Source: Winogradskyella sp. KYW1333 (GTDB lineage: Bacteria > Bacteroidota > Bacteroidia > Flavobacteriales > Flavobacteriaceae). Taken from it: a DNA stretch of 64,000 bases. The notes under the pieces were generated by a model. It worked only from the letters and a program-made list of their open reading frames with translations, did not search any database and was not told the DNA's origin. Positions 16,226 to 42,032 of this stretch are shown here, piece after piece. The DNA lies in NCBI RefSeq assembly GCF_003335675.1, contig NZ_QPHL01000016.1, forward strand, positions 186,001 to 250,000. The letters are read 5' to 3'. Position numbers and translations under genes: made by a program. Positions within the stretch are counted from its first letter, which is position 1. Every line of letters begins with the position of its first letter.

Positions 16226-17254
16226 ATGAAAATACTGGTTACTGGTGCCGCTGGTTTTATTGGCTTTTTTACTTCAAGAGTTTTAGCAGAGAAGGGTCAT
16301 GATGTTATTGGACTAGATAACATTAATGATTATTATGATATTAACCTTAAATATTCAAGACTTAAAGAATTAGGAATCAAGAGGGAATACGCAGAGGAGT
16401 TTAATAAATTATCATCGAGTGATAAACTCAATTTTTCTTTTGTTAGAATGAATTTGGAAGATCGTGAAGGCCTACCTAAATTATTTGAAAATGAAAAATT
16501 TGATGTAGTCTGTAATCTTGCCGCCCAAGCAGGTGTTAGATATAGCTTAGAAAATCCAAATACATATGTAGATTCAAATTTGGTTGGATTTGTAAATGTT
16601 TTGGAATGCTGTAGGCATAATAATATTAAACATTTAGTTTATGCTAGTAGTTCTAGCGTTTATGGCCTAAACGAGAAAATTCCTTTTTCAACAGATGATA
16701 ATGTAGACCATCCAATAAGTCTTTATGCAGCTACTAAAAAGAGTAATGAGTTAATGGCACATACTTATAGTCATTTGTTTAATATCCCAACAACAGGGCT
16801 TAGATTTTTTACAGTATATGGACCTTGGGGAAGACCAGATATGGCTATGTTCCTATTTACTGATGCTATAATAAATGATAGTCCAATAAAGGTTTTTAAT
16901 CATGGTAAAATGGAAAGAGACTTCACTTATGTTGATGATATTGTTGAAGGTATACTCAGAATTTGTGAAAATTCAACTAAGCCACGTTTAAAGAATAGTT
17001 CACCCTACAAGGTATACAATATAGGCAATAATAACTCGGTAAAGTTGATGGATTTTATTGAAGAAATTGAATATAACTTAAAAAAGGTTGCGAAGAAAGA
17101 AATGTTACCTATACAACCTGGTGATGTAGAAAAAACATGGGCTAACGTTAATGAGTTGATAAAAGATTATGATTATCAACCAAATACCTCAATAAAAGAA
17201 GGTGTAAAATCCTTTATCGATTGGTTTAAAAATTATTATAGTAAAAATAATTAA
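16226..17254 (+). CDS. UDP-glucuronate 4-epimerase-like NAD-dependent epimerase
   Basis: A 342-residue extended short-chain dehydrogenase. The NAD loop is TGAAGFIG (residues 6-13), and DNINDYYDINLKYSRL is the signature of CapI/LspL-type UDP-glucuronate 4-epimerases. The catalytic set is visible as ASSSSVYG and YAATKKSNE. It would turn UDP-glucuronate into UDP-galacturonate in the cytoplasm. It opens the exopolysaccharide locus directly before UDP-glucose dehydrogenase, which would supply its substrate. Length is typical for the family. Confidence 0.87.
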   Translation: MKILVTGAAGFIGFFTSRVLAEKGHDVIGLDNINDYYDINLKYSRLKELGIKREYAEEFNKLSSSDKLNFSFVRMNLEDREGLPKLFENEKFDVVCNLAAQAGVRYSLENPNTYVDSNLVGFVNVLECCRHNNIKHLVYASSSSVYGLNEKIPFSTDDNVDHPISLYAATKKSNELMAHTYSHLFNIPTTGLRFFTVYGPWGRPDMAMFLFTDAIINDSPIKVFNHGKMERDFTYVDDIVEGILRICENSTKPRLKNSSPYKVYNIGNNNSVKLMDFIEEIEYNLKKVAKKEMLPIQPGDVEKTWANVNELIKDYDYQPNTSIKEGVKSFIDWFKNYYSKNN

Positions 17255-17374
17255 TTACGTATTTGATTTTTATCGTTAAAAAGATACGTTAATATAAAAA
17301 TTTATAAAAATTAGAAAATTTCATTCACATTTGCTGGAATTAAAAATTAACCCAAGTCAAATTAGCTAGAAACT

Positions 17375-18754
17375 ATGAAGATAAATAAAATTTGTTGCAT
17401 CGGTGCAGGATATGTAGGTGGTCCTACTATGGCCGTTATTGCCAAAAAAAATCCAAATATACAAGTTACAATCGTAGACATTAACCAAGAGAGAATAGAC
17501 TCTTGGAATGATGATGACGTTTCGAAGCTTCCAATCTACGAACCTGGATTGGCAGAAATCGTAGAAGAAACTAGGGGTAAAAATTTACATTTTTCTACAG
17601 AAATTGATAAAGCAATTGATGAAGCTGAAATAGTATTTATTTCTGTAAATACCCCAACAAAAACTTATGGTAAGGGAAAAGGTATGGCCGCAGACCTAAA
17701 GTATGTTGAATTATGTGCAAGAAATATTGCAAATGTTGCAAAAACTGATAAAATAGTAGTCGAAAAATCTACCTTACCAGTCAGAACAGCTCATGCTATT
17801 AAGAGTATTTTAGATAATACTGGAAGTGATGTTAAATTTGATATACTGTCTAACCCAGAATTTTTAGCTGAAGGTACGGCAATACAAGACCTTTTAGCTC
17901 CTGACAGAGTTTTAATTGGTGGTGAGTCTGAAGATGCAATTGAAGCCTTAGCAAATATTTACGGAAGTTGGGTGCCTCAAGAACAAATTCTGAGAACAAA
18001 TGTTTGGTCTTCAGAATTATCTAAATTAACAGCAAATGCTTTCCTAGCTCAACGTATATCGTCAATAAATGCAATTTCTGAACTATGTGAACATACAGAA
18101 GCTAATGTTAATGAAGTGGCAAGAGCTATTGGAATGGACTCAAGAATTGGGCCTAAATTTTTAAATGCATCTATTGGTTTTGGAGGGTCATGTTTCCAAA
18201 AAGACATTCTAAATCTTGTATATATCGCAAGAAGCTATGGTTTAAATGAGGTCGCAGATTATTGGGAACAAGTAATTATTTTAAATGATCATCAAAAAAG
18301 AAGATTTTCGGATAATCTAATCAGCACTTTATATAACACCGTTTCTGGTAAAAAAATTGCAATGTTGGGTTGGGCTTTTAAAAAAGACACCAATGATACT
18401 CGTGAATCTGCAGCTATTTATGTGGCAGATCATTTATTAAATGAGCGAGCAAATATTGCTGTATTTGACCCTAAGGTCCCTAAAGGGAAAGTTTACACGG
18501 ATTTAGATTATCTTAACACACGGTCAGAGAAAGAAAATGAAGAACTTGTCGAAGTTTATGATAACCCTTATGATACAGTAAAAGATGCTCATGCTATCGC
18601 AATAATGACGGAGTGGGACGAGTTTAAAACTTATGATTGGTCTAAGATTTATAATCTTATGAAAAAGCCTGCATTTATTTTTGATGGGAGAAATATCTTA
18701 GATGAAAATAAATTGACCACCATTGGTTTTAAATATGCTGGAATTGGCAAGTAA
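17375..18754 (+). CDS. ugd: UDP-glucose 6-dehydrogenase (eukaryote-like class)
   Basis: A 459-residue protein. It oxidises UDP-glucose twice to UDP-glucuronate with NAD. The N-terminal Rossmann fold starts with [17 protein letters not shown], the catalytic Cys is Cys273 in [10 protein letters not shown], and [14 protein letters not shown] marks the UDP-binding domain. The long form and the [16 protein letters not shown] segment resemble animal and plant enzymes more than the shorter Gram-negative form. With the preceding epimerase it would provide both UDP-GlcA and UDP-GalA for the polymer made by this locus. Confidence 0.93.
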
Positions 18755-18867
18755 GACCTAATAAGTATCTATATTTACCTTTTATGTGTTTATAAATAGT
18801 TTTTGTTGCGTTTCAATTCACCAACCAAAAAAAAGTTGAATCTTAATCAACTAATCTAATATCTGCA

Positions 18868-19959
18868 ATGACAAAAAAGAAAATTGCCTTTGTAATTGGT
18901 GCCTTAACAGCAGGAGGTGCGGAGCGAGTTATTTCGACACTCAGTAACGAATTTATTTCTGACTTTAACGTTACAATCATAACATTTAGAAAGACTGAAC
19001 CATTTTACCGATTAGACCATGCTGTAACAGTAATTTCTTGTTTTGATGAGATTAGCCAGCCAAACTCTTTCTTGGAGTCTATAAAACTTAATTACAAAAT
19101 TTACAAGCGTATTACTCAAATAGTTAAAGATCTTAATATAGATTTACTCATAGGTTTTATCACTCAGGCAAATATTAAAACTGTTTTAGCAGCAAAAAAA
19201 AACAAAATACCATGTATTATAAGCGAAAGAAGTGACCCTTTTAAAAGTGATATTCCTCGTTTCTGGTTGATTTTAAGAAAGTTAATTTACCCAAGAGCCA
19301 ATTCTATTGTGGTTCAGACGAAAAAGGTAAAGGAAATTTACCAGAAAATGTTAAATCACGAAAATATAGTTGTTGTACCCAACCCAATTTCTACAGATTT
19401 CACTGAATTGGCTACAAGTGAAGTAAAAAAAGAAAAAATAATATTATCTGTTGGTCGTTTGAATAATGATAAGCGTCATGATTTGTTAATAAAAGCGTTT
19501 AAAACTCTTAGTCCTAAAGACTGGAAAGTTTTAATTATTGGCTTTGGGTCTAATAAGAGTAAATTACAAAAACTTATCAATGATTTAGATTTATCTCATC
19601 AAATTGAAATAAAATCAAACATAAAAAATATCGAAGATTATTATAGAAGGGCCTCCTTATTTATTTTTACCTCCAGAGCTGAAGGATTCCCGAATGTATT
19701 GTTAGAGGCAATGTACTTTAAGTTGCCATGTATTTCAACAGACTGTAATTATGGCCCATCAGATATCATAACAAATGGTCAGGATGGTTTTTTAATTCCA
19801 GTTGACAATCAAAGTAGATTAGTCGCAAAAATGGATCAGGTTATAAAGGATGAGGACTTAAGAACAATAATTTCTCAAAATGGACATAAAACCGCTTTAA
19901 AATATAAAAGTAAAATCGTGACTCGTATGTGGAAAAATATTATCTCAAAACATATTTAA
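18868..19959 (+). CDS. Glycosyltransferase family 4
   Basis: A 363-residue GT-B fold enzyme. The N-terminal acceptor domain starts with FVIGALTAGGAERV, the glycine-rich GGAER motif of GT4 enzymes. The C-terminal donor domain contains ILSVGRLNNDKRHDLLIKA and the E(x7)E motif within EGFPNVLLEAM, which binds the nucleotide sugar. It probably adds one sugar of the repeat unit at the cytoplasmic membrane face. Donor and linkage cannot be read from sequence. It is one of several GT4 genes in the locus. Confidence 0.85.
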   Translation: MTKKKIAFVIGALTAGGAERVISTLSNEFISDFNVTIITFRKTEPFYRLDHAVTVISCFDEISQPNSFLESIKLNYKIYKRITQIVKDLNIDLLIGFITQANIKTVLAAKKNKIPCIISERSDPFKSDIPRFWLILRKLIYPRANSIVVQTKKVKEIYQKMLNHENIVVVPNPISTDFTELATSEVKKEKIILSVGRLNNDKRHDLLIKAFKTLSPKDWKVLIIGFGSNKSKLQKLINDLDLSHQIEIKSNIKNIEDYYRRASLFIFTSRAEGFPNVLLEAMYFKLPCISTDCNYGPSDIITNGQDGFLIPVDNQSRLVAKMDQVIKDEDLRTIISQNGHKTALKYKSKIVTRMWKNIISKHI

Positions 19960-20080: not shown

Positions 20081-21205
20081 GTGAGAATTTTAAAGTACAT
20101 CACACTAGGCCTGGTTCTACTTAACATACCATCTATTGTATTAGTTGTTTTTGGCGTAGGATTTGGAGCTTTAATGAGTTATTTTACTATTTTATCTCTA
20201 GCACTATATTATTTTTTTGAGAAAAAGACATCTCCAAATTGGTTTCTCTTAATTATTTCTCTTTTATATTTAATGATTAGTGGATTGCAATATGTAGGAT
20301 TGACTTCCCAATTTTTTATGGACATCATAAAATTCTTAATCTTTTTAATAAGCGCTTATGAACTTGTTAAAAACACTAATATTGCTGAATTTAACCTATT
20401 TCTTCTTTTGGGAGCTATTACAATACCATTAGAAGCAATACTCTTCACAAGTGATTTTGGGAGATATGCCGGTTTTTACATTAACGCAAATGTGGCAGGG
20501 TTTATTTGCATTACAGGTTATGCATCGACTTATGGTTTAAAAAATGTAGGAACAAAATTAATTGGACAATTCTTATTCACTCTTGCAGGTTTATTAACCT
20601 TTTCTAGAACCTTTATTGTTATTTGGTTAGTAATTAATTTAATCTCTCTAAAAATAAATATTAGAAATATTAGAATTTTTGGACTGGGTTTCTTAATTGT
20701 TGGATCATTGTTTTTTATAGATGAAATGGTTGGATTAAATAATCCGCGTTTCGAACAACTGAGAAGCATATTGAATAATGAAGAAGTATCTACAGAAGAT
20801 TTGAATGCCGATTCAAGATCTGACACATGGGCACTCTTTTATGATCAAATTTTAGATTCTCCACTTATAGGGAATGGTTACGGGTCATTTTCTGGAAAAG
20901 AGGGTTATGATATGGGAGTTCACAACTCGTATCTTATGATACTTGGAGAAGCCGGAATTATCCCCTTCGTATTATTTGTGGCTTATATTGGATATTTGTT
21001 AGCTATGAGCCTACTTTATTTTAAAAAAAAACCGAATTTAATTATGCAAGCTATTGCCTTATCTCTTTTTTTAATGGCCAATCATAATTTCTTCGGGTTT
21101 TATTTTGTTTCATTTGCTGCGATGTGGATTCAATATCAAATACATTTGTGTAAACAAGATGAACAAAATGAAATTGAAAATATAGAAGAAATATTAATCA
21201 ACTAG
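20081..21205 (+). CDS. O-antigen ligase/polymerase family membrane protein (Wzy candidate)
   Basis: A 374-residue protein with about ten predicted membrane helices. It carries a Wzy_C/O-antigen-ligase-type segment (SRSDTWALFYDQILDSPLIGNGYGSFSG, then GVHNSYLMILGEAG), where RSDTW and the H in HNS are characteristic. It would polymerise lipid-linked repeat units on the periplasmic side. The frame begins with GTG at 20081; no in-frame ATG is close. It is followed by a convergent large gene on the other strand. Ligase and polymerase cannot be told apart by sequence, but in a Wzx/Wza/Wzc locus polymerase is the better guess. Confidence 0.8.
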   Translation: MRILKYITLGLVLLNIPSIVLVVFGVGFGALMSYFTILSLALYYFFEKKTSPNWFLLIISLLYLMISGLQYVGLTSQFFMDIIKFLIFLISAYELVKNTNIAEFNLFLLLGAITIPLEAILFTSDFGRYAGFYINANVAGFICITGYASTYGLKNVGTKLIGQFLFTLAGLLTFSRTFIVIWLVINLISLKINIRNIRIFGLGFLIVGSLFFIDEMVGLNNPRFEQLRSILNNEEVSTEDLNADSRSDTWALFYDQILDSPLIGNGYGSFSGKEGYDMGVHNSYLMILGEAGIIPFVLFVAYIGYLLAMSLLYFKKKPNLIMQAIALSLFLMANHNFFGFYFVSFAAMWIQYQIHLCKQDEQNEIENIEEILIN

Positions 21206-25709: not shown

Positions 25710-27254
25710 ATGGCAAGAGTCTCCAAATCATTAAAGAATGCGAAAGTTGGTGTATTTTTTTTTATACTTTCAATTTTTGTACAGTTCTTTTCAAGGAAAA
25801 TCTTTTTAGAAAATTTAGGGGATGAATTTATTGGCTTAGAAACAACTCTAAGAAGTATACTTAGCTTTTTAAACTTGGCCGAATTAGGAATTGGTACTGC
25901 AATAGGTTTTACACTCTACAAACCAATTTTTGACGAGAACCATGATGAAATAAATAAAATAATTGCTCTCTTAGGTGTTCTTTATAGAAGAATTGGTTAC
26001 ATCATATTTGGTGTAGGATTTATAATTTCTCTATTTTTTCCTTTAATATTTGCTGATACACCTTTCTCTTTGACAATCATTTATTATGTGTTTTATTCAC
26101 TATTGATATCCGTTCTTTTAAGCTATTTTGTTAATTATCATATTAGTCTTTTAGGTGCAGATCAAAAAGGTTACATAGTGCAACAGTATTTTCAAACATT
26201 TACTATAACGCGTGTAATTTTGCAGTTTATCGTAGCTTTATATTACAAGAACTTTTTTGTCTATATCACATTAGAGCTTGTTTTCAGCATAATTTACAGT
26301 GTTGTAGTACGTTATAAAATTAAGCAAGAATATCCTTGGCTTGTTATAAATTCGGCACAAAAAACAGAAATCATTAAAGAGTACCCTCAGGTGATCACAA
26401 AAATCAAACAGGTATTCTTCCATAAGTTGAGTGCATTTGTGAAAAATGGTACTGACAACCTTTTGATTTATGCCCTTATTAATCTTCAAAGTGTAGCTTT
26501 TTTCGGCAATTATCAACTAATATTTATGAAACTTATCGGTCTAGTAAAGATGGCATTTGCCGGTACTGGATCTGCCGTGGGTAATTTAATTGCAGAAAAC
26601 GATGAAAAGAACATAAATAAGGTGTTGTGGGAGTTAATCTCAATTCAGTTTTTTATCGCTGGGTTCTTCAGTTTAGTTATATATCATACAATGGATGCTT
26701 TCGTCTTATTGTGGTTAGGAGAAAAATATATATTATCCCATACCATATTACTATTAATGATAGCCAATTTCTTTATGATACAAATAAGTTCGCCAATTGA
26801 ACGATTCAAAAATGCATATGGATTATATTCTGATACTTGGGCCGCTATGACTGAGGCAGTTATTAACTTGGTAATATCGTTTATTTTTGGCAAATTATTA
26901 GGTATAGCTGGTATAGTTCTGGGTACAGTCGTAAGTATGTTTTTTATAGTTGTTCTATGGAAACCTTACTTTTTATACAAAAGAGGATTTAAAAAAAGTG
27001 TACTGCATTATTGGAAAGGTTTATTACCAATGATAATAGTGTTTATAGCAACAATATTTTTTATTTATATTATAAAAGATTATTTTTATTATAATTCAGA
27101 TAATATAACTCTTATCAATTGGATTATATACGCGATTCAAGTCACTATCGTGGTAACTATTGTCTATGGTACTATGCTTTACTTGTTTGTGCCAGGATTT
27201 AAAGACTTTTGCATTAGAGTAAAAACATTAGTTTTAAGTAAAATACAAAAATAG
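25710..27254 (+). CDS. Polysaccharide flippase of the MOP/Wzx type
   Basis: A 514-residue polytopic protein with about 12-14 predicted membrane helices spread over the whole length. The N-terminal region (FFSRKIFLENLGDEFIGLETTLRSILSFLNLAELGIGTAIGF) is typical of Wzx/sugar-isomerase-type translocases of Bacteroidota. It would flip undecaprenyl-linked repeat units to the periplasm for the polymerase at 20081-21205. It is the first plus-strand gene after the inverted lyase gene and begins a run of co-directional genes. Confidence 0.82.
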   Translation: MARVSKSLKNAKVGVFFFILSIFVQFFSRKIFLENLGDEFIGLETTLRSILSFLNLAELGIGTAIGFTLYKPIFDENHDEINKIIALLGVLYRRIGYIIFGVGFIISLFFPLIFADTPFSLTIIYYVFYSLLISVLLSYFVNYHISLLGADQKGYIVQQYFQTFTITRVILQFIVALYYKNFFVYITLELVFSIIYSVVVRYKIKQEYPWLVINSAQKTEIIKEYPQVITKIKQVFFHKLSAFVKNGTDNLLIYALINLQSVAFFGNYQLIFMKLIGLVKMAFAGTGSAVGNLIAENDEKNINKVLWELISIQFFIAGFFSLVIYHTMDAFVLLWLGEKYILSHTILLLMIANFFMIQISSPIERFKNAYGLYSDTWAAMTEAVINLVISFIFGKLLGIAGIVLGTVVSMFFIVVLWKPYFLYKRGFKKSVLHYWKGLLPMIIVFIATIFFIYIIKDYFYYNSDNITLINWIIYAIQVTIVVTIVYGTMLYLFVPGFKDFCIRVKTLVLSKIQK

Positions 27255-27314: not shown

Positions 27315-27896
27315 ATGATTAAGTCTAAAGTCGATTATAAATATTATTTAGAAAGAGATAGAATTGCCCTAAACGCTAAACCAAAAAATCTAGAGGATAA
27401 AGTAATTGGTGTAATTTCACCAAATCCTATTTATACTTTTCAAAAAAGTATGCGAAAGTTAGAATATTATTCCAATTGTAAGAATAAAGGTTTAAATAAG
27501 CTATATACAGCATATCTTAAATATAAGTTCAAAAAAATATCGATAAAGCTTGGTTTTTCAATACCTATTAATGTTTTTGGTCCTGGATTATCAATTGTAC
27601 ATTATGGTACTATAGTCATTAATAGAAACACCAATATTGGCGCTAATTGCAGAATCCATGCTTCCGTAAATATTGGGGCTTCTGGTGGTAAACCTGAGGC
27701 ACCACAGTTAGGTGACAATATTTATATAGCGCCAGGTGCTAAAATCTATGGGGATATTACTATTGCAAGTAATACCGCAATTGGCGCAAATGCCGTTGTA
27801 AATAAATCTTTTGAAAAAGAAAACACAGTAATAGCAGGAATACCAGCAAAAGTTATTGGAGATGTAGATATTAGCCAAATCATAAAACATTTATAG
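27315..27896 (+). CDS. Left-handed beta-helix acetyltransferase (serine acetyltransferase-like)
   Basis: A 193-residue hexapeptide-repeat protein. Repeats cover about residues 95-180 (INRNTNIGANCRIHASVNIG, DNIYIAPGAKIYGDI), and a VIAGIPAKVIG end is typical of CysE/WcaF-like acyltransferases. The catalytic His is probably within IVHYGTIVI. Here it would O- or N-acetylate a sugar of the repeat unit with acetyl-CoA rather than serve cysteine synthesis, because of its place in the locus. Its stop is immediately followed by the next ATG (no gap), showing operon structure. Confidence 0.8.
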   Translation: MIKSKVDYKYYLERDRIALNAKPKNLEDKVIGVISPNPIYTFQKSMRKLEYYSNCKNKGLNKLYTAYLKYKFKKISIKLGFSIPINVFGPGLSIVHYGTIVINRNTNIGANCRIHASVNIGASGGKPEAPQLGDNIYIAPGAKIYGDITIASNTAIGANAVVNKSFEKENTVIAGIPAKVIGDVDISQIIKHL

Positions 27897-31132: not shown

Positions 31133-31269
31133 GCTCAGAAAGAAAAATTAGTTGAATTTAAACTCAATAATCTACCTACTAATCATTAAGGTTTATAAGT
31201 TGTTAAAATTAATTAATATTATTACACTAAAGTTATTCCTTTTTATTTCTAGTGTTTAATAAAATAGAA

Positions 31270-32427: not shown

Positions 32428-34335
32428 ATGTGCGGAATTAATGGATTTATAGATTTTAATTCTTCTAAAAAGGATAAGGTAGTTTCTTTTTTAAACAATA
32501 TGAATCAGTTGATATTTCATCGTGGTCCAGATGAGAATGGGATTTTCGCAGAATATTCAGATTCATGCTCAGTTGGTATGGGTATGAGAAGGCTTTCAAT
32601 AATAGATTTATCATCTGGACAACAGCCCATTTATTCAGATGATGAAAAGATAGTTATTGTGTTCAATGGAGAAATATATAACTACAAAATTCTAAAATCT
32701 AAACTTGAGGCAGAGGGTGTTAAGTTTAATACATCAAGTGATACAGAAGTCATACTTAAAGCTTATGAAAAACATGGCATAGAATCGTTTAAATGGCTTG
32801 ATGGAATGTATGGTTTTAGTATATATGATAAAAGAATAAATAAAATTTTCATTGCTAGAGACTTTTTTGGTGAAAAGCCCTTGTATTATGCAATGATAGA
32901 TAATAAATTTATTTGGGCATCTGAATTAAAATCTATTATCAAGACCTGTAAATCCAAACCAGCGATTTCAAAAAAAGGATTGAATCTTTTTTTTAGATTA
33001 ACATACGTACCAGCACCTCATACAATTTATGAAGGTATTTTTAAATTAGAAGCCAATCATTTTATAACATACGATTTAGAAAAACAAGATTATAAGATTG
33101 AAAAGATCAATAGCGAACCAGAACCTAAAGAATCTGATATCTCCTTTGATGATGCTAGGAAGAAAACAAAGGAATTGGTTTATAACAGTGTTGATAGTAG
33201 ATCAATTGCAGATGTTGGTCTGGGCACATTCTTATCTGGCGGTGTAGATTCTTCAATTATTTCGTTATGTCTTTCAAGAGCAACAGAAAGAAAGATTGAC
33301 ACATTTTCCATAGGTTTTAAAAAAGCCTCATACGATGAAACGGATAAGTCAAGAGTAGTTGCCAAAATGCTAGATAGTAATCATCATGAATTTATTATTG
33401 ATGAGGATGATTTAAAAAATAACATTCATGAGATTTTGGTAAATTTTGACGAACCATTTTCTGATTCTGCGGCACTTCCCACTCACCTACTTTCTGAAAA
33501 AACAAGAGAACATGTCACAGTTGCATTAACAGGTGATGGTGGCGACGAAGTTTTTGGAGGATATAATAAATATTATGTGGGAAAAATGAATAGGAAGTAC
33601 ACTAAAGTTGTTCCAAAAGCATTACATAATTTTATTTTAAATCTGAGTAAGAAACTATTAGTAGACAAAGACGATAAACGTGGTAAAAAGTTTCAAATAA
33701 ATAAGCTACTCAATGCAATTAACTATGAAGGTGAGTTTTATTGGGACATTATATCTTTAGCCAATACAAGCCGTCAATTATCAGAAATAATGCTTCCAGA
33801 ATATTTTGACAAAAATATATTTAAGGAATATAAGAATGTATTAGGTAATAAAAATATTAAAACACTTACAGACTTCAGGCTGGTAGATAAGATTTTAAGC
33901 CTTGAAGGAGGTATGCTAGCTAAGGTAGACCGCACAAGCATGTTAACGAGTTTAGAATGTAGAGCACCTTTCCTTAATAGAGAAATCTGGGAGTTTACCA
34001 ATACACTACCAGAAAAATACTTAATGGATGGATGGAATAAAAAGTATATTCTAAAAGAAGCTTTTCGTGACGATTTTCCAGAAAATTTTCTTGAAAAAAG
34101 TAAAAGTGGATTTGGTTCACCAACTGGAGATTGGTTAAGACAAAGTTTAAGAAAAGAGCTAGAGGGGTATATCGATCCTAACATGTTAAGGGAACAAGGT
34201 ATCTTTAACAGAGATGAAATAACAAAAATAGTAACTGATCATCTGAATAGTAAGAAGGATAGTACATTTAGAGTTTGGTCCTACTATTGTTTTCAAAAGT
34301 GGTATAAGTTCAATTATTTAAATGGTGAAGCATAA
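32428..34335 (+). CDS. Asparagine synthase-like glutamine-hydrolysing amidotransferase
   Basis: A 635-residue protein of the AsnB family. Cys2 in MCGINGF is the nucleophile of the N-terminal glutaminase domain (about 1-200, HRGPDENG, IVFNGEIYN). The synthase domain has the PP-loop LSGGVDSS and LTGDGGDEVFGGY. AsnB-type enzymes in polysaccharide loci can amidate the carboxyl of a uronic acid instead of aspartate (for example WbpS-type proteins in Pseudomonas O-antigen clusters). Its position between two glycosyltransferases favours that role, but true asparagine synthesis cannot be excluded from sequence. Confidence 0.87.
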   Translation: MCGINGFIDFNSSKKDKVVSFLNNMNQLIFHRGPDENGIFAEYSDSCSVGMGMRRLSIIDLSSGQQPIYSDDEKIVIVFNGEIYNYKILKSKLEAEGVKFNTSSDTEVILKAYEKHGIESFKWLDGMYGFSIYDKRINKIFIARDFFGEKPLYYAMIDNKFIWASELKSIIKTCKSKPAISKKGLNLFFRLTYVPAPHTIYEGIFKLEANHFITYDLEKQDYKIEKINSEPEPKESDISFDDARKKTKELVYNSVDSRSIADVGLGTFLSGGVDSSIISLCLSRATERKIDTFSIGFKKASYDETDKSRVVAKMLDSNHHEFIIDEDDLKNNIHEILVNFDEPFSDSAALPTHLLSEKTREHVTVALTGDGGDEVFGGYNKYYVGKMNRKYTKVVPKALHNFILNLSKKLLVDKDDKRGKKFQINKLLNAINYEGEFYWDIISLANTSRQLSEIMLPEYFDKNIFKEYKNVLGNKNIKTLTDFRLVDKILSLEGGMLAKVDRTSMLTSLECRAPFLNREIWEFTNTLPEKYLMDGWNKKYILKEAFRDDFPENFLEKSKSGFGSPTGDWLRQSLRKELEGYIDPNMLREQGIFNRDEITKIVTDHLNSKKDSTFRVWSYYCFQKWYKFNYLNGEA

Positions 34336-34337
34336 AA

Positions 34338-35471
34338 ATGAAAAAGAAAAGAATATTAATAGTTGCTTCTTTATCTCAATCACTTATTAATTTTAGAGGG
34401 GATTTTATCAAAAGTCTAATACATTCTGGTTATGACGTTTATGCCTTAGCACCTAGGCATCTTGATAAAGTTAAGGATAAATTAATTGAATTTGGCGCAA
34501 AACCTCTTGATTTTAATTTAAATAGAACCGGTTTAAATCCAATTAAGGATATACAAACCATTAGAGAATTGAAATCAATTATGAAGGATAATAAAATTGA
34601 TTTAGTATTTCCTTACACCGTAAAACCAGTAATTTACAGTTCAATAGCAGCAAATCAATTGGGCATACCTGTTATCTCTTTAATAACAGGTTTGGGATTT
34701 GCTTTTACAGGTTTGACGAGAAAAGCAAGAGTATTGCAACAACTTAATGAAACCTTATACAAGTTATCTATAAGAAAGAATAAAATTGTAGTATTTCAGA
34801 ATCGTGATGATTATCAATTATTTTTGGATAGAAAGATTCTTAAGAAAAATAACAAAGTTGCATTTGTTAGCGGTTCTGGTGTAAACCTAAATCAATTTAA
34901 GTTCAGAAAAAATAAAATTGATTCTAACAAAATTAGTTTTTTACTAGTTTCGAGATTGATTAAAGAAAAGGGAATTGCTCTATTTTTGAATGCTGCAAAA
35001 GTTCTAAAAGAAAAATATCCTGAATCTGAATATCATGTAATTGGTGCCACCGATAAATCTCCATCTTCTATTAAGGAGGAAGAATTAAAAAATTTACATG
35101 AACAAGGTATAATAGTGTATTATGGTAAACAAAACAACATACCCGAACACTTGTACAATCGTGATGTATTTGTATTACCCACTTATTATCGGGAAGGTGT
35201 ACCCAGATCCATATTAGAAGCGCTTTCAGTTGGATTACCAATTATTACAACTTATACTCCAGGATGTAAAGAAACAGTAAAAAAAGATTACAACGGTATT
35301 TTAATTAAGCCTCAAAATATAGACGCTTTAATCAATGCAATGGAGTACTTTCTAATTAATAGCGATAAGATTGAAGAAATGGGTATAAACAGCAGAAATT
35401 ATGCTGAAGAACGCTTTGATGTAAATATTGTTAACAGCGATATTATTGAACTTATTTCAAAAGAAATTTAA
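34338..35471 (+). CDS. Glycosyltransferase family 4 (PglA-like)
   Basis: A 377-residue GT-B enzyme. The N-terminus (ILIVASLSQSLINFRGDFIKSLI, later GLGFAFTG) matches the PglA/N-acetylgalactosaminyl-transferase-like branch of GT4. The donor domain carries LLVSRLIKEKGIALFLNAA and EGVPRSILEAL for nucleotide-sugar binding. This branch often adds the second sugar to an undecaprenyl-linked bacillosamine or FucNAc-type residue, which fits the PglE/PglF-like genes downstream. It starts 2 nt after asnB-like. Confidence 0.83.
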   Translation: MKKKRILIVASLSQSLINFRGDFIKSLIHSGYDVYALAPRHLDKVKDKLIEFGAKPLDFNLNRTGLNPIKDIQTIRELKSIMKDNKIDLVFPYTVKPVIYSSIAANQLGIPVISLITGLGFAFTGLTRKARVLQQLNETLYKLSIRKNKIVVFQNRDDYQLFLDRKILKKNNKVAFVSGSGVNLNQFKFRKNKIDSNKISFLLVSRLIKEKGIALFLNAAKVLKEKYPESEYHVIGATDKSPSSIKEEELKNLHEQGIIVYYGKQNNIPEHLYNRDVFVLPTYYREGVPRSILEALSVGLPIITTYTPGCKETVKKDYNGILIKPQNIDALINAMEYFLINSDKIEEMGINSRNYAEERFDVNIVNSDIIELISKEI

Positions 35472-35779: not shown

Positions 35780-36907
35780 ATGAATAAAAAAATATGGTTG
35801 TCTTCACCACATATGAGTGGTAAAGAACAATTCTACATTAAAGAAGCATTCGAAGCAAACTGGGTAGCGCCTCTCGGACCAAACGTGAATGGTTTTGAAA
35901 ACGAACTTGAAGCCTATTTAGGACGAGATATGAATGTAGCTGCGCTCGCTTCTGGAACGTCTGCTTTACACTTAGGTTTAATATTATTAGGAGTTAAAAA
36001 TGGAGACGAAGTTATTTGTCAAAGTAAAACTTTTTCTGCCTCTGCAAATCCAATTACCTATTTAGGTGCTATTCCAATTTTTGTTGATAGTGAAAAAGAC
36101 ACTTGGAATTTATGTCCCGAACAATTAGAATTAGCAGTTAAAGATAGAATTTCAAAAGGTAAAAAACCTAAAGCAATTATTGCAGTTCACCTATATGGAA
36201 TGCCATATAAAGTTGATGAAATAAGGGAAGTTGCTGACAAATATGAAATACCAATTTTAGAAGATAGTGCTGAATCTTTAGGAAGTACATACAAGGGTGT
36301 TAAATGTGGTACTTTTGGCGATATCGCTATTTTGTCTTTCAACGGCAATAAAATTATTACCACTTCAGGAGGAGGTGCATTAGTTACAAACTCTAAGGCC
36401 GTGAAAGATAAAGCCGTTTTTCTCTCAACGCAAGCTAGAGATAACGCTCCACATTACCAACATTCTGAGATAGGTTATAATTATAGGATGTCAAATATTG
36501 TTGCTGGTATTGGGAGAGGTCAAATGACCATATTAGATAACCATGTAAAACAAAGACGTTTAAATCATATGTTTTATATGAATGCTTTTGATGGAATTGA
36601 GGAAATTAGGTTTTTGGAAGAACCATCTCAGATGTATTCTAATCGTTGGTTAACAACTATTCAATTACCTTCATATTCAATACGCGAAGGACTTAGAGAA
36701 TTTTTACTTAAAGATAATATTGAGTCAAGACCTCTTTGGAAACCAATGCACTTACAACCTATTTTTAAGGATTCTCCTGCATTTATAAATGGAATATCAG
36801 AAGACTTATTTAAAAAAGGTCTATGTTTACCTAGTGGTTCCAATTTAACCGAAGATGATTTAAACAGGGTAATTTTAGGAATAAAAACGTATTTTACAAA
36901 ATGCTAA
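35780..36907 (+). CDS. DegT/DnrJ/EryC1/StrS-family sugar aminotransferase (PglE-like)
   Basis: A 375-residue PLP-dependent aminotransferase. The active-site Lys is Lys191 in LSFNGNKIITTSGGG. GTSALHLGL (about 59-67) and EDSAESLGS (161-169) form the cofactor pocket. The sequence is of the PglE type, which aminates the C4-keto sugar produced by a PglF-type dehydratase. That dehydratase is encoded next, and the two genes overlap by 7 nt. Product is likely a UDP-4-amino-4,6-dideoxy sugar. Confidence 0.88.
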   Translation: MNKKIWLSSPHMSGKEQFYIKEAFEANWVAPLGPNVNGFENELEAYLGRDMNVAALASGTSALHLGLILLGVKNGDEVICQSKTFSASANPITYLGAIPIFVDSEKDTWNLCPEQLELAVKDRISKGKKPKAIIAVHLYGMPYKVDEIREVADKYEIPILEDSAESLGSTYKGVKCGTFGDIAILSFNGNKIITTSGGGALVTNSKAVKDKAVFLSTQARDNAPHYQHSEIGYNYRMSNIVAGIGRGQMTILDNHVKQRRLNHMFYMNAFDGIEEIRFLEEPSQMYSNRWLTTIQLPSYSIREGLREFLLKDNIESRPLWKPMHLQPIFKDSPAFINGISEDLFKKGLCLPSGSNLTEDDLNRVILGIKTYFTKC

Positions 36908-38805
36908 ATAATTTTTTAAATAAAATATCCCAAAAATATGCTTCTAAATGGCTTGTTTTGCTATTTGATATTTGTATAGTAATTAGCGCATTTTTTATTG
37001 CATATTTTATTAGGTTTAATTTTAAACTTGACTTTAGTTTAACAACACTTCTTGAACAAATTCCGTATGTGGCCATCGCAGCTGCAATCAGTTTTATTTC
37101 CGTTGGGTCCCACGAGGGAGTTGTTAGATTCACAGGATTCAAGGATATTGTCAATATTGTAATTGGCGCTAATATTCTCGCAACAATTCTAATTGGTCTT
37201 ACCTTTTTGAGTAGAAAAATAAGTGTTGTTGATAGTTTATTCAATATATCAGGTTCTATTGTTTACATTCATTTATTATTGAATATTTTATTTTTAATAG
37301 GTTCTAAACTTTTTATTAAATCAGTATATAACTATATTAAACAAGATTTAAATTCAATTTCTAATGTATTAATATTTGGAGCTGGCAGTTCTGGAATGCT
37401 CACATATGATGCTATTATTAATGATACTAAAAACACACTTCAGGTCGTTGGATTTATTGATGATGACGAAAGAAAAATTGGGAAGAAAATCGATCTCGTC
37501 AAGGTTTATAATTTATTATCAATAGATGAAACTTTTATTGAAAAAAATAATGTCGAGGATGTAATAATATCCATTCAAAATATAGAGCCTACAAGGTTAC
37601 TTCAGATTACCGGTAATCTTTTTGGTTTAGGGTTAAAAGTAAAAATTGTACCTCCAGTACAAAATTGGATTGATGGAGATCTCAGTGTTGGCCAAATTAA
37701 AGAGGTTAAAATTGAAGACCTTTTGGGACGAGAGCCTATAAATATTAAGAATCCTGATTTAGAAGAGCAATATGACAATAAAGTTGTACTTATTACAGGA
37801 GCTGCTGGATCAATAGGTAGTGAAATATGTCGAAAAGTAAGTTTATATAACTACAAAAAATTAATACTTGTTGATAATGCTGAATCAGCACTATATGACA
37901 TTCAACAAGAATTTAGACAAGTAGGCCTTCAAAATATAGAGACTGTTGTTGCAGATGTAAGAAACAGAGCGCGAATAGATCAAATATTTAACCAATATAA
38001 ACCAAAAATTGTTTTTCATGCTGCAGCCTACAAGCATGTACCACTGATGGAAAACAACCCATTTGAAGCTGTAAATGTAAATATTGCGGGTACAAAAAAC
38101 GTTGCTGATATTTCTGTAAAACATAGCGTTGATAAGTTTGTTCTTATTTCAACCGACAAAGCTGTGAATCCTACTAATGTAATGGGGGCTACTAAAAGAA
38201 TTGCTGAATTGTATATTACATGTTTAAAGGGTAAAGGTCATACTAAGTTTATAACAACTAGGTTTGGTAATGTTCTAGGCTCTAATGGTTCAGTGATTCC
38301 TTTATTCAAAAAACAAATTGAAAAAGGTGGCCCATTAACCGTAACACATAAAGAAATAACACGCTATTTTATGACTATTCCAGAGGCTTGTCAATTAGTA
38401 TTAGAGGCAGCTGCAATGGGGAATGGTGGTGAAATATATGTTTTTGATATGGGAGAGCCTATCAAAATATTTAATTTAGCTACTAATATGATTGTATTGT
38501 CTGGTCTTAGATACCCAGAAGATATTGATATAAAAATTACAGGCTTGAGACCAGGCGAAAAGATATATGAAGAATTATTGGCTGATGGAGAAAACACTAA
38601 AAAAACATATCATGAAAAAATTATGATTGCGAAGTCTAGAAGAGTTGATATTGAATCAGTTGAAAGAAATATTAATAAGTTATCCAATATCAATACCTTA
38701 GCGCAACCTCTGGAAATCGTTTCAGCTATAAAATCACTAATACCTGAGTATATTTCTAACAATTCAACATTTGAAGTGTTAGATGATAAAAATGCTATCA
38801 ATTAA
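36901..38805 (+). CDS. UDP-N-acetylglucosamine 4,6-dehydratase, membrane form (PglF/WbpM-like)
   Basis: A 634-residue protein. Four N-terminal membrane helices (about 15-130) are followed by a CoA-binding-like Rossmann domain (about 145-270) and an extended SDR catalytic domain (about 285-600). The SDR domain starts with VLITGAAGSIGSEI and contains FHAAAYKHVPLMENNP, STDKAVNPTNVMGATKR (Met in place of the usual catalytic Tyr, as in WbpM/PglF) and TTRFGNVLGSNGSV. It makes UDP-4-keto-6-deoxy sugars at the inner membrane. It overlaps the aminotransferase gene and precedes wza by 18 nt. Confidence 0.9.
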   Translation: MLNNFLNKISQKYASKWLVLLFDICIVISAFFIAYFIRFNFKLDFSLTTLLEQIPYVAIAAAISFISVGSHEGVVRFTGFKDIVNIVIGANILATILIGLTFLSRKISVVDSLFNISGSIVYIHLLLNILFLIGSKLFIKSVYNYIKQDLNSISNVLIFGAGSSGMLTYDAIINDTKNTLQVVGFIDDDERKIGKKIDLVKVYNLLSIDETFIEKNNVEDVIISIQNIEPTRLLQITGNLFGLGLKVKIVPPVQNWIDGDLSVGQIKEVKIEDLLGREPINIKNPDLEEQYDNKVVLITGAAGSIGSEICRKVSLYNYKKLILVDNAESALYDIQQEFRQVGLQNIETVVADVRNRARIDQIFNQYKPKIVFHAAAYKHVPLMENNPFEAVNVNIAGTKNVADISVKHSVDKFVLISTDKAVNPTNVMGATKRIAELYITCLKGKGHTKFITTRFGNVLGSNGSVIPLFKKQIEKGGPLTVTHKEITRYFMTIPEACQLVLEAAAMGNGGEIYVFDMGEPIKIFNLATNMIVLSGLRYPEDIDIKITGLRPGEKIYEELLADGENTKKTYHEKIMIAKSRRVDIESVERNINKLSNINTLAQPLEIVSAIKSLIPEYISNNSTFEVLDDKNAIN

Positions 38806-38823: not shown

Positions 38824-39606
38824 ATGAAAAATCATTATTTAGTAATTTCAATCATATCAATTATTTTTATTACTTCTTGTGCATCAAGAAAGAACCTTGT
38901 CTACTTTCAAGACGAACCATTAGAAGCTGGTTTACTCGTCTCTGAACCTGAACAACTGGTTTATAAACCAGATGATATTTTAACTATTAATGTGTCAGCA
39001 CTCGATCCTGATACAGTAAGACCCTTTAACTTACCTGTAGTTGCTAACAACACCAATGTTGGACTTAATGCACAGGCACAACTACAAGTTCAATCTTATT
39101 TAGTTGATTACGACGGTAATATTCAATTTCCGGTTTTGGGTGCTTTAAAGGTTGAAGGTTTAACTAGAACTGAGCTAACTTCACTATTAACCGAAAAAAT
39201 TAGTGCTTATGCTAATGATCCTATTGTTAATGTTAGACTTGCAAACTTTACAATTACAATTATAGGTGAAGTTTCTAGACCAGGTACATTTACAATTCAG
39301 GATGAAAGAATTACCTTATTAGAAGCATTAGGTATGGCAAATGATTTGACAATCTACGGGGCAAGAAAAAATGTTCTAATTATTAGAGAAGTTGAAGGAA
39401 AAAAGAAATTCGCTACAATTGATCTAACGTCAATAAATACGGTGAACTCTCCTGTTTATTATTTACAACAAAATGATGTAATTTATGTTGAACCAAATCG
39501 AGCCCGAATAAGATCTTCTAACTATAATCAAAACAATAATGTTTTGATTGCAGCAATCGGAACGTTAACTACAATTGTTGCTATTTATTTAGCAAATTCG
39601 AACTAG
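38824..39606 (+). CDS. Polysaccharide export outer-membrane lipoprotein (Wza-like)
   Basis: A 260-residue protein. A lipoprotein signal ends at Cys19 (ITSC). The polysaccharide export domain follows (about 45-150, YKPDDILTINVSAL, YDGNIQFPVLGALKV), then one SLBB domain (about 155-225, ITIIGEVSRPGTF, LTIYGARKNV), and a C-terminal hydrophobic helix (about 240-258) that could form the outer-membrane part of the pore. It is the export channel partner of the Wzc-like protein 69 nt downstream. Confidence 0.92.
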   Translation: MKNHYLVISIISIIFITSCASRKNLVYFQDEPLEAGLLVSEPEQLVYKPDDILTINVSALDPDTVRPFNLPVVANNTNVGLNAQAQLQVQSYLVDYDGNIQFPVLGALKVEGLTRTELTSLLTEKISAYANDPIVNVRLANFTITIIGEVSRPGTFTIQDERITLLEALGMANDLTIYGARKNVLIIREVEGKKKFATIDLTSINTVNSPVYYLQQNDVIYVEPNRARIRSSNYNQNNNVLIAAIGTLTTIVAIYLANSN

Positions 39607-39674
39607 TATTTAAACTGATAGATAAGATCTCCTTAATATAGTATAATAATAAAAGGAATATAATTTAAAACTTT

Positions 39675-42032
39675 ATGAAATCTAAATCAGTAAGAAAAGA
39701 AATTTCTGAGATATTACAACTATATATATCATACTGGAAATGGATATTATTTTGTGTAATAATTGCAATTTTATTGGGTTTTACTTATTTAAGATATGCA
39801 ACCTATGAGTATAGTGCAACAGCAACTATAAAATTACAGGAAGAAGATCAGGCTGCAAAATTACCAAGTTTAGAAGATGTTACCAAATCAGGTTTTTTCT
39901 CCCAAGGTTCAGACAAAATAAAGGATGAAATAAAAATAATTCAGTCTAGAACGTTAGCAGAAAACGTTATCAAAGCTTTAAACTTAAATATTAGTTATTT
40001 TACAGCAGGTAAAATAAAAACAAACGAAATTTATAAATATCCACCAGTAAAAATTAATTTTTTTGAAAGTGATTCATTAATTTATACTGTCAATAAAGCA
40101 ATCTATATTAGAATAATATCAGATTCAGAATTTTTATTGTTTAAAGATGACGGAAAATCTCTTTATGATAAAGATGATTCTGAAGGCAAACTCCATACTT
40201 TTGGTGATAAAATTGATTCAGATTTTGGAGGTTATGTCTTACTTCCAAATTTTGAAACTGGTAAGGCGAAAAAAATGGATCTTAAGATAACAATTCGTCC
40301 TTTAAATAAATTAGTACCTGTATACAATAAATCGGTCACTATCGCAGTTGAAAAAGGATCAAGTGTGATCAAATTAGATGTAAAACAAACAGTTGCTCAG
40401 AAGGCGGTAGACTATTTAAATCAACTTATTAAAGAATACAATAAAGATGTGCTACTTGACAAAGAAGAAATCGTCAAAGTTACCTCTGATTTTATAAATA
40501 AACGGCTCGAACAAGTATCTGAGGAATTGGGTGAAGTTGAATCAAATGCCGAACTTATACAACAACAAAACAATCTTACTGCGTTAGGAGCACAAACAGA
40601 TTTGAATTTACAAACTAGAAAACAACTTGATAACCAGATTGCTACGACATCTACAAATATTCAAATGATTTCTTATTTACAAGATGAAATCGTTGACGAA
40701 AATAAAATAAGCGATTTATTGCCAGCCAATATTGGTATTGGTGATGCTAGTACGGCTCAGATTATAAAAAGCCATAATGAGCTTGTTGCCCAGCGAGATA
40801 GAATTTTAAAAAATGCTGATGAAAAAAATCCGGTTGTTATCTCATTGAACAATCAAATAAATACATTAAAAACAAACCTTCAAAACTCATTAGAGAGTAT
40901 AAAGGAAACATCTAAACTTACACTTAAAAATTTAAATAATGAAAGTAGACGTGTTAGTGGTCAATTATACTCAGCACCTACAAAAGAAAGGAAATTTAGA
41001 TCAATTCAGAGGCAAAAAGACATTAAAGAATCGTTATTTCTATATCTATTAGAAAAACGAGAAGAATCAGCAATTCGATTAGGAATGTATTCTCCTAACG
41101 CCAAAATTGTTGATGAGGCTTTTTCTTCATTTAAACCAGTCTCACCAACTGCTGTTATTATTTATTTGGCATCTATAATATTTGGTTTAATAATTCCTAT
41201 TGGAATTATATTTATTATCGATTTGCTGGACAACAAGATATATAGTAAGGATGATTTAACTAATATTCTCGATATTCCATATTTAGGTGATATCCCTAAA
41301 ACTTCGAAAAAAGTAAAGCTGATAAAAAAGGTTGATTATTCATCAAAAGCAGAATCTTTTAGAATAATCCGATCCAATATAGATTTTTTATTAAAAACTG
41401 TCGATAATAGAGCCAAGAAACTTTTCGTGACATCAACTAAAGCTCAAGAAGGCAAATCACATACCACTACAAATTTGGCTAGTTCCATTTCATTTTCAAA
41501 GAAGAAAGTTCTATTAATTGAGATGGATATTAGAGTGCCTAAAATACTTAAGTATTTAGGAATTAAAGATAAGCATGAAAAAGGATTGTCAGATTATATT
41601 ATTGATAATTCTCTTACACCTGGCCAAGTAATAATTAATCACCCACAAAATCACTTTTTTGATATTTTACCATCGGGAACAATTCCACCAAACCCTTCAG
41701 AGCTACTCATGAGTAAAAGAGTTGCAGAAATCATTGCCTATGCTGAGAAAAAATACGATTATATCGTTGTGGATACCTCTGCTGTAGGTTTAGTAAGTGA
41801 TACACTTTTAATTTCAGAATTTGCTGATATGTTTATTTATGTTGTAAGTGCTGATAACGTGGATAAAAGACAGCTTGTTAATGTTGCGCAACCTCTTTAT
41901 GACAAAAATCGATTGCCAAATTTGGTGCTACTTTTAAATGGAGTAAAGAAAGGTAAAAAAGGTTACGGATATGGATATGGCTATGGATACGGAAGTTCAC
42001 CGACCAAAAAGAAAAAGTGGTATCGCTTTTGA
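39675..42032 (+). CDS. Polysaccharide co-polymerase / BY-kinase (Wzc-like)
   Basis: A 785-residue protein. A Wzz domain has its first membrane helix at about 20-38 and its second at about 490-512, with a long coiled-coil periplasmic part in between. The cytoplasmic tyrosine autokinase (about 560-760) has a Walker A variant KAQEGKSHTTT and Walker A' LLIEMDIRVPK. The tail GYGYGYGYGYG before SSPTKKKKWYRF is the autophosphorylated tyrosine cluster. It sets polymer length and connects synthesis to the Wza pore. It ends the capsule locus and converges on putA with 25 nt between the stops. Confidence 0.92.
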   Translation: MKSKSVRKEISEILQLYISYWKWILFCVIIAILLGFTYLRYATYEYSATATIKLQEEDQAAKLPSLEDVTKSGFFSQGSDKIKDEIKIIQSRTLAENVIKALNLNISYFTAGKIKTNEIYKYPPVKINFFESDSLIYTVNKAIYIRIISDSEFLLFKDDGKSLYDKDDSEGKLHTFGDKIDSDFGGYVLLPNFETGKAKKMDLKITIRPLNKLVPVYNKSVTIAVEKGSSVIKLDVKQTVAQKAVDYLNQLIKEYNKDVLLDKEEIVKVTSDFINKRLEQVSEELGEVESNAELIQQQNNLTALGAQTDLNLQTRKQLDNQIATTSTNIQMISYLQDEIVDENKISDLLPANIGIGDASTAQIIKSHNELVAQRDRILKNADEKNPVVISLNNQINTLKTNLQNSLESIKETSKLTLKNLNNESRRVSGQLYSAPTKERKFRSIQRQKDIKESLFLYLLEKREESAIRLGMYSPNAKIVDEAFSSFKPVSPTAVIIYLASIIFGLIIPIGIIFIIDLLDNKIYSKDDLTNILDIPYLGDIPKTSKKVKLIKKVDYSSKAESFRIIRSNIDFLLKTVDNRAKKLFVTSTKAQEGKSHTTTNLASSISFSKKKVLLIEMDIRVPKILKYLGIKDKHEKGLSDYIIDNSLTPGQVIINHPQNHFFDILPSGTIPPNPSELLMSKRVAEIIAYAEKKYDYIVVDTSAVGLVSDTLLISEFADMFIYVVSADNVDKRQLVNVAQPLYDKNRLPNLVLLLNGVKKGKKGYGYGYGYGYGSSPTKKKKWYRF

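What the first reader, a model, noticed from the sequence alone, without database searches (positions are those of the whole stretch)
16226..42032. Capsule locus that combines uronate synthesis with two ATP-grasp ligases and an AsnB-like amidotransferase
The sequence shows UDP-glucose dehydrogenase and a UDP-glucuronate 4-epimerase at one end and, further in, a TupA-like ATP-grasp protein (27897-28865), a sugar-transfer ATP-grasp protein (29986-31044) and an AsnB-like protein (32428-34335). TupA is known from teichuronopeptide, a glucuronate-peptide polymer, and AsnB-like enzymes in some O-antigen loci amidate uronic acids. Together they suggest a surface polymer whose uronate carboxyls carry amides or amino acids, which I do not know as a described flavobacterial capsule type. 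The link between the genes is inference.
Basis: partly seen in the sequence, partly recalled or inferred. Interest (0 to 1): 0.62.

Follow-up and report, generated by a model that had tools for sequence, protein, structure and literature searches.

The report
Capsule locus with amide-forming enzymes
A marine bacterium related to Winogradskyella carries a gene set for a surface sugar coat that most likely has some of its acidic sugars capped with amides or amines; two of the three enzyme types have tested relatives that do this, but the coat itself has not been examined.

Summary
All named genes are present: UDP-glucose dehydrogenase, an SDR epimerase, a TupA-type ATP-grasp, a sugar-transfer-associated ATP-grasp and an AsnB-like protein, in a capsule-type locus. 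The AsnB-like protein is not the cell's asparagine synthetase: it scores and looks like the uronamide enzyme WbqG, and all 17 genomes examined have genes for another asparagine route. A TupA-like domain is a reported glucuronate amidoligase in Campylobacter. The second ATP-grasp stays untested. A new regularity: glycosyltransferase GT4b sits beside TupA, the second ATP-grasp or a second AsnB in 13 of 17 unselected loci, against 21 of 118 for other GT4-like genes, though not significantly in the AsnB-selected set. Unrelated amide-forming enzymes may trade places at one step. All three kinds occur together in 4 of 55 loci. Substrates and polymer are untested.

The parts
16226..17254 (+). gla: SDR-family UDP-uronate 4-epimerase-like protein
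   Evidence: Pfam Epimerase; nearest solved proteins 5u4q (432 bits, deposited as dTDP-glucose 4,6-dehydratase) and 6zl6/6zla (168 bits). That 6zla is a UDP-GlcA 4-epimerase is recalled; the specificity is inferred
17375..18754 (+). ugd: UDP-glucose 6-dehydrogenase
   Evidence: 600 bits to 5w4x, UDP-glucose 6-dehydrogenase
18868..19959 (+). GT4a glycosyltransferase
20081..21205 (+). Wzy-like polymerase
   Evidence: Wzy_C 1e-10
25710..27254 (+). Wzx-like flippase (inferred)
   Evidence: no Pfam or NCBIfam hit; 514 aa, hydrophobic by eye; homologues in several relatives' loci
27315..27896 (+). serine-acetyltransferase-like hexapeptide acetyltransferase
   Evidence: Pfam Hexapep; closest NCBIfam models below their cut-offs
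27897..28865 (+). TupA-type ATP-grasp ligase
   Evidence: ATPgrasp_TupA 6e-55; AF2 model pLDDT 85.8; D-Ala-D-Ala ligase, LysX/ArgX and RimK folds
28869..29948 (+). GT4b glycosyltransferase; homologues often lie beside an amide-forming enzyme
29986..31044 (+). sugar-transfer-associated ATP-grasp (ATPgrasp_ST)
   Evidence: PF14397 9e-21; K161, K169, D314, E327, N329 among the residues invariant in 5 sequences
31252..32421 (+). GT4c glycosyltransferase, directly upstream of AsnB
   Evidence: closest NCBIfam model PglJ, below its cut-off
32428..34335 (+). AsnB-like glutamine-dependent amidotransferase, WbqG-like
34338..35471 (+). GT4d glycosyltransferase, directly downstream of AsnB
35780..36907 (+). 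PglE/LegC-type sugar aminotransferase
   Evidence: 1o61 and 4ztc, 316 and 314 bits; that these are C. jejuni PglE is recalled
36901..38805 (+). PglF-type UDP-GlcNAc 4,6-dehydratase
   Evidence: 5bju WlaL, 318 bits; WlaL=PglF is recalled
38824..39606 (+). Wza-type export protein
   Evidence: Poly_export 2e-16
39675..42032 (+). Wzc-type co-polymerase and tyrosine autokinase
   Evidence: Wzz 1e-11; eps_fam 133 bits over cut-off 108

Best explanation
This is a Wzx/Wzy-type capsule (or O-chain) locus whose repeat contains uronic acids with amidated carboxyls. Ugd makes UDP-GlcA and the SDR probably turns part of it into UDP-GalA. PglF and the aminotransferase make a UDP-4-amino-4,6-dideoxy-GlcNAc. 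Four GT4 enzymes build the repeat on the lipid carrier. AsnB, with glutamine and ATP, turns one uronate carboxyl into a primary amide, as WbqG is reported to do. TupA, and probably the second ATP-grasp, activate a uronate carboxyl with ATP and join it to an amine (amino acid, amino alcohol or their phosphate), probably on the lipid-linked chain next to the step run by GT4b, as Cj1438 does in Campylobacter. Shown here: the genes, families, intact motifs, TupA fold, separation of AsnB from asparagine synthetase, and the neighbourhood counts. Inferred: every substrate, the amine, the order of steps and the final structure.
For: Families and positions. AsnB: NCBIfam score order (TIGR03108 490, TIGR01536 443, TIGR03104 343, PRK09431 287 bits) is that of WbqG (528, 460, 364, 268) and not that of the genome's own true AsnB (PRK09431 951, TIGR01536 475, TIGR03108 252). 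Tree of 40 rows: 18-row clade at 100/100, the two true synthetases on a branch of 4.23 at 100/100. Motifs EPFSDSAAL / GDGGDE / KSGF resemble WbqG EPFADSSQL / GDAGDE / KKGF, not TTIRAST / GEGSDE / KEQF. Asparagine supply: 10 of 17 genomes have the E. coli-type AsnB, 2 of 17 have AsnA, one of them alone, and exactly the 6 without either have GatB. TupA: fold; TupA-like GlcA amidoligase in PMC11800379 (passages). Uronamide precedents WbqG and PGN_1234 in PMC7468200 (passages). TupA loci with a linked dehydrogenase 9 of 9, others 25 of 42, p=0.021; ATPgrasp_ST loci with TupA 5 of 7, others 5 of 48, p=0.0013. GT4b beside TupA, ATPgrasp_ST or an AsnB in 13 of 17 unselected loci, 21 of 118 for GT4a plus other GT4-like genes, p=2.5e-6; within-locus permutation p=0.0017.
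Against: AsnB loci lack a linked UDP-sugar dehydrogenase in 8 of 12 unselected loci, and loci with any of the three enzyme kinds had one in 16 of 27 against 18 of 24 without (p=0.37). All 19 genomes checked have one elsewhere, but one with AsnB (G021, 90% complete) showed only a TviB-like one (58% to TviB). With window-type Ugd alone the TupA link is 7 of 9 against 22 of 42, p=0.27. WbqG joins the AsnB clade only with weak support (81/50). In the AsnB-selected set the GT4b rule is not significant (7 of 13 against 6 of 19, p=0.28; within-locus permutation p=0.985). All p-values ignore relatedness, and one search ran ten tests. No TupA or ATPgrasp_ST sequence of proven function was compared directly. 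Foldseek TM-scores for TupA are modest (0.32-0.44 by query length in the rows shown). The ATPgrasp_ST model failed (pLDDT 45).
Confidence: 0.55

Rival explanations
1. The ATP-grasp enzymes attach an amino acid or hydroxy acid to the free amine of the 4-amino-6-deoxy sugar made by PglF and the aminotransferase, not to a uronate.
For: The window locus makes a 4-amino sugar, and no clear PglD was recognised: the only acetyltransferase is serine-acetyltransferase-like and gives 35.5 bits to the NeuD/PglD model against a cut-off of 160.8. In relatives a PylC-like ATP-grasp (families, from G061) is common: 24 of 63 loci at 300 bits or more, with a PglC within 3 kb in 19 of the 24. The window locus has neither.
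Against: TupA does not stand in for the PylC-like enzyme: 6 of 10 TupA loci have both. The tested TupA-like domain works on GlcA. TupA goes with linked UDP-sugar dehydrogenases (9 of 9). The window genome has a PylC-like gene at another place (L061).
Confidence: 0.2
2. AsnB amidates a carboxyl that is not a uronate from this locus, or makes another amide or amidine in the conserved GT4c-AsnB-GT4d part.
For: AsnB stays in loci without any linked dehydrogenase (8 of 12); 3 of these 8 carry FucNAc-type genes instead (G045, G061, G125; families from G061, homologues).
Against: All 19 genomes checked have a UDP-sugar dehydrogenase elsewhere. In 15 of 16 testable AsnB-selected genomes, the window's included, one lies within 26 kb on the AsnB contig. 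WbqG-like motifs.
Confidence: 0.2
3. The AsnB-like protein is an ordinary asparagine synthetase that happens to lie in the locus.
For: TIGR01536 (asparagine synthase) is over its cut-off, 443 against 267 bits; WbqG is too (460), so this does not discriminate.
Against: Own genome has a 67%-identical E. coli-type AsnB; tree, motifs and asparagine-supply pattern.
Confidence: 0.04
4. The locus makes a teichuronopeptide-like copolymer with peptides on glucuronate.
For: TupA family name, and Ugd in the same locus.
Against: No peptide-polymerising gene was recognised in the Pfam and NCBIfam scans; the tested TupA-like enzyme adds one small amine.
Confidence: 0.06

Closest known systems
E. coli O121 WbqG / P. 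gingivalis PGN_1234 (WbpS) / P. aeruginosa O6 WbpS
   Same: AsnB-like class II amidotransferase in a polysaccharide locus; WbqG lies beside GT4 genes and has the same score order and similar motifs. PMC7468200 (passages) reports WbqG and PGN_1234 as required for a uronamide and WbpS as proposed for it
   Different: 34% identity to WbqG, a clade of its own, Ugd rather than TviB in the window locus; PGN_1234 and WbpS sequences were not compared
Campylobacter jejuni Cj1438 C-terminal TupA-like amidoligase (HS:2 capsule)
   Same: TupA-like ATP-grasp in a capsule locus with a glycosyltransferase partner; PMC11800379 (passages)
   Different: Stand-alone protein beside a GT4, not fused to a GT2; amine unknown; sequences not compared here
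Bacillus TupA / teichuronopeptide
   Same: Pfam family ATPgrasp_TupA and glucuronate supply
   Different: No evidence for a peptide polymer; Gram-negative Wzx/Wzy-type locus. Role of Bacillus TupA recalled
Microbulbifer capsule of GalNAcA amidated with D-Ala, and other marine amidated uronates
   Same: The proposed chemistry (PMC3210612, passages)
   Different: Other bacteria; genes not compared

Membership tests
WbpS/WbqG-type uronamide amidotransferase | Catalytic Cys glutaminase domain plus SGGxDS PP-loop | tested here: met
WbpS/WbqG-type uronamide amidotransferase | Profile scores and active-site motifs like WbqG rather than E. coli AsnB | tested here: met
   other AsnB-like rows share part of the motifs
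WbpS/WbqG-type uronamide amidotransferase | Same clade as WbqG to the exclusion of others | tested here: inconclusive
   81/50 support; 34% identity
WbpS/WbqG-type uronamide amidotransferase | Linked uronate-forming dehydrogenase as a rule of the window's AsnB clade | tested here: not met
   4 of 12 unselected loci; AsnB-selected genomes 15 of 16; the window itself has one
WbpS/WbqG-type uronamide amidotransferase | Makes a uronamide | not testable with these tools
   needs assay or polymer structure
TIGR03108 XrtA amidotransferase (equivalog) | Score over 816.9 bits | tested here: not met
   489.8 bits; WbqG also fails, 528.5
Asparagine synthetase (E. coli AsnB type) | Branches with AsnB, TTxRAST and KEQF motifs, PRK09431 over 499 bits | tested here: not met
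TupA-like ATP-grasp (PF14305) | Over Pfam cut-off and ATP-grasp fold | tested here: met
   186.8 bits against 25; (Z 13.4, 207 aligned, rmsd 3.8 to a Ddl)
Cj1438C-type uronate amidoligase | ATP-dependent amide bond at the C6 carboxyl of GlcA | not testable with these tools
   needs assay
Sugar-transfer-associated ATP-grasp (PF14397) | Over Pfam cut-off | tested here: met
   74.7 bits against 31.4
Sugar-transfer-associated ATP-grasp (PF14397) | ATP-grasp fold | tested here: inconclusive
   model pLDDT 45; no significant PDB relative by sequence
Wzx/Wzy-dependent capsule | Wzx, Wzy, Wza, Wzc present | tested here: inconclusive
   Wzy, Wza and Wzc by profile; Wzx only by size, hydrophobicity and position

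The most novel reading that the evidence does not exclude
Bacteria of this family swap unrelated amide-forming enzymes (TupA ATP-grasp, ATPgrasp_ST, a second AsnB) at one fixed assembly step beside glycosyltransferase GT4b, so that the repeat gets different carboxyl caps while the backbone enzymes stay. ATPgrasp_ST would then be a further, so far untested, family of uronate amidoligases, and some capsules (the window among them) would carry several different carboxyl amides.
Probability: 0.25. Interest if true: 0.6.

Novelty: new variant of a known kind. Interest (0 to 1): 0.42.

Why it matters
If right, it gives a function to the ATPgrasp_ST family, extends the recent Campylobacter TupA result to free-living marine bacteria, and predicts from gene content which flavobacterial capsules lose negative charge through amides, which bears on phage adsorption and on enzymes that degrade them. 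It also shows that an AsnB annotation in such loci should not be read as asparagine synthesis.

Tried and rejected
Rejected: AsnB as housekeeping asparagine synthetase. Rejected: the ATP-grasps as glycosyltransferases (for TupA; alone for ATPgrasp_ST). Weakened: uronate synthesis as a constant partner of this AsnB clade.

Led nowhere: a DNA search for relatives of the window's AsnB gene in E. coli genomes (one chance match); AlphaFold model of ATPgrasp_ST; profile comparison of the two ATP-grasp families (probability 0.1%, 5 and 7 sequences only, so not informative); PDB sequence searches for TupA (nothing at E up to 1) and ATPgrasp_ST (only a ribosomal protein at E 0.32 and 0.02, taken as chance); paper searches of little use. 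The paper that first reports the Campylobacter amidoligase is not held; I know it only through PMC11800379.

Rows dropped: of 80 PglF hits in 120 family genomes I used the window and 62 with at least 50% identity, and left out 17 weaker ones; 8 of the 62 had under 18 kb upstream, which leaves 55 loci with the window, 51 of them with 33 kb or more. Of 120 planned stretches I asked for 116; of the other four only one (1.4 kb of G033) exists by the contig lengths. In the glycosyltransferase count one locus (G151) was dropped as I took it for the genome of L017 (100% identical AsnB and dehydrogenase), and the 17 AsnB-selected loci were counted apart. GT4c and GT4d were not used in the control because they flank AsnB itself. 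The GT4b idea arose from the AsnB-selected loci and was then counted in the unselected ones, the window included in both numerator and denominator.

Full report
What is there. The window lies in contig 8 of a 2.8-Mb genome. Its nearest named relatives by AsnB are Winogradskyella (W. alexanderae 80%, W. eckloniae 78%). Downstream, the aminotransferase (best solved relatives 1o61/4ztc) and the 634-aa dehydratase (best solved relative WlaL) indicate a UDP-4-amino-4,6-dideoxy-GlcNAc; Wza and Wzc close the locus. Near relatives share the frame: the alanine-dehydrogenase-type gene, gla and ugd upstream in 4 of the 5 relatives whose upstream part I fetched (G001, G002, G012, G014; G003 has gla and a more distant ugd), and the proline-dehydrogenase-type gene downstream in L012, L013 and L026, with aroB in L012. 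The window has no PglC between GT4d and the aminotransferase; 12 of the 17 AsnB-selected loci have a PglC-type frame, and the window's genome has Bac_transf genes elsewhere.

AsnB-like protein. It is 29% identical to E. coli AsnB (149 bits) and 34% to WbqG of E. coli O121 (336 bits), while another gene of the same genome is 67% identical to E. coli AsnB. I took WbqG to be the asnB-annotated gene between wzy and two GT4 genes in the O121 O-antigen cluster. In a 40-row tree the locus clade (18 rows, 100/100) is well apart from the true synthetases. Deep joins with WbqG are weak, so I do not claim it is a WbqG orthologue. Score order over four NCBIfam models is that of WbqG and not that of the genome's true AsnB. 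Motifs resemble WbqG, but several other AsnB-like rows share parts of them, so they exclude E. coli-type AsnB rather than prove a uronate substrate. WbqG and PGN_1234 are reported as required for a uronamide (PMC7468200, passages read).

Is it needed for asparagine? Of 17 genomes with this AsnB (the window and 16 relatives), 10 have the E. coli-type AsnB, 2 have AsnA, one of them besides AsnB, and 6 have GatB, exactly the 6 with neither. By gene content every one of the 17 has another route.

TupA-type protein. Its model (7 sequences, pLDDT 85.8) matches carboxylate-amine ligases of the ATP-grasp fold: Ddl, LysX/ArgX, PsnB, RimK (best E 1.8e-7, TM-scores modest); best VIA Z 13.4 with 207 residues aligned at 3.8 A to a Ddl. 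The C-terminal TupA-like domain of Campylobacter Cj1438 forms the amide at C6 of GlcA with serinol-P or ethanolamine-P, and the next glycosyltransferase needs the amidated acceptor (PMC11800379, passages).

ATPgrasp_ST. Pfam assigns it well over the cut-off, and many residues are invariant in five near relatives, but the model failed and no significant solved relative was found by sequence. In a 120-genome family sample PF14397 gave matches over 70 bits in 18 genomes, the window's included; I take the many weaker rows for other ATP-grasp proteins. Its function is inference.

Unselected sample. To avoid choosing loci by AsnB I anchored on the PglF-type gene: 80 of 120 family genomes matched, 62 plus the window were taken, 55 had at least 18 kb upstream and 51 at least 33 kb. 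Ten tests were run. Co-occurrence (55 loci): ATPgrasp_ST with TupA 5 of 7 against 5 of 48 (p=0.0013); TupA with AsnB 6 of 10 against 17 of 45 (p=0.29); ATPgrasp_ST with AsnB 4 of 7 against 19 of 48 (p=0.44); first with second AsnB kind 3 of 14 against 8 of 41 (p=1). All three enzyme kinds together: 4 of 55 (G029, G093, G148 and the window). The 19 of the 55 loci whose fetched upstream stretch held no dehydrogenase (two of them cut short) lie in genomes that all have one elsewhere; G021 only a TviB-like one. In the AsnB-selected set a dehydrogenase lies within 26 kb on the AsnB contig in 15 of 16 testable genomes. So the link is a trait of near relatives, not of the clade. These tests ignore phylogeny and multiple testing. 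The TviB-like dehydrogenases compared (from L017 and L024) are 60% identical to O121 TviB.

An exchange at one step. In the 17 AsnB-selected loci 13 have a GT4b homologue of at least 40% identity; beside it lie TupA (L012, L023), TupA and ATPgrasp_ST (L019), ATPgrasp_ST (L025), an AsnB (L015, L021, L027) or none of these (6). In the 54 unselected loci GT4b homologues have one of these beside them in 13 of 17, against 21 of 118 for GT4a plus other GT4-like genes (p=2.5e-6); drawing random GT4-like genes from the same loci gives a mean of 7.6 and p=0.0017. The AsnB beside GT4b is of the second, L094-like kind in all 8 unselected loci concerned. In the AsnB-selected set it is 7 of 13 against 6 of 19 (p=0.28), and the permutation is against it (p=0.985), as there the GT4c and GT4d homologues are all beside an amide enzyme. 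Many loci are kin, so the strength is overstated. The simplest reading is that different amide-forming enzymes act on the residue that GT4b adds or accepts.

Rival tested in part. If TupA acylated the 4-amino sugar in place of the PylC-like ATP-grasp (24 of 63 loci at 300 bits or more; PglC within 3 kb in 19 of these; families), the two should exclude each other; instead 6 of 10 TupA loci have both.

Verdict. The locus is real, and two of the three enzyme types have tested relatives that amidate uronates. The general AsnB-uronate link is not borne out at locus level. I rate it a new variant of a known kind. That no flavobacterial capsule of this type is in print I cannot claim: the searches were narrow, and of PMC3210612 I read passages only.

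Noticed in passing
L259:196-4934 (genome G013); matching frames in G004, G006, G008, G010, G015: In L259 an amidase gene (GatA size, 466 aa) is followed by a 1112-aa gene that joins GatB (residues 17-476) to an aspartyl-tRNA-synthetase-like part (OB fold, class II D/K/N synthetase, GAD insert). GatB and GAD hits in frames of 1117-1124 aa occur in all 6 of 17 genomes that lack AsnA and E. coli-type AsnB, and each of these 6 also has a separate GAD frame of 585-626 aa, the size of an AspRS (10 of the 17 genomes examined). It looks like a covalently fused asparagine transamidosome. A paper search (three papers listed, none opened) showed no title on it.
   Followed up: partly
window 21248-25186 (-): A 1312-aa protein with a Big_2 domain and a type IX sorting tail lies on the opposite strand inside the capsule locus; a frame of at least 40% identity is in 13 of 71 loci examined, in 12 of them on the strand opposite to the anchor gene.
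   Followed up: partly
L060:12350-17119 (own genome C8, about 337-342 kb): Three ATPgrasp_ST genes lie among 213/214-aa genes with weak, below-cut-off GNAT matches; the context was not worked out.
   Followed up: no
L061:9129-16837 (own genome C8, about 29-37 kb): A second place with an ATPgrasp_ST gene, a PglC-type transferase, a PylC-like ATP-grasp and two weaker PylC-like genes.
   Followed up: no
L013:13707-14705 and similar genes in other loci: A FemAB-like protein (PF02388 33 bits) has relatives in 19 of 63 loci (20 frames), with a PglC within 3 kb in 16 of them; perhaps an aminoacyl transfer to the amino sugar.
   Followed up: partly
window 35472-35779: No PglC between GT4d and the aminotransferase; in L012 the place is also empty, whereas 12 of 17 AsnB-selected loci have a PglC-type frame.
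   Followed up: partly
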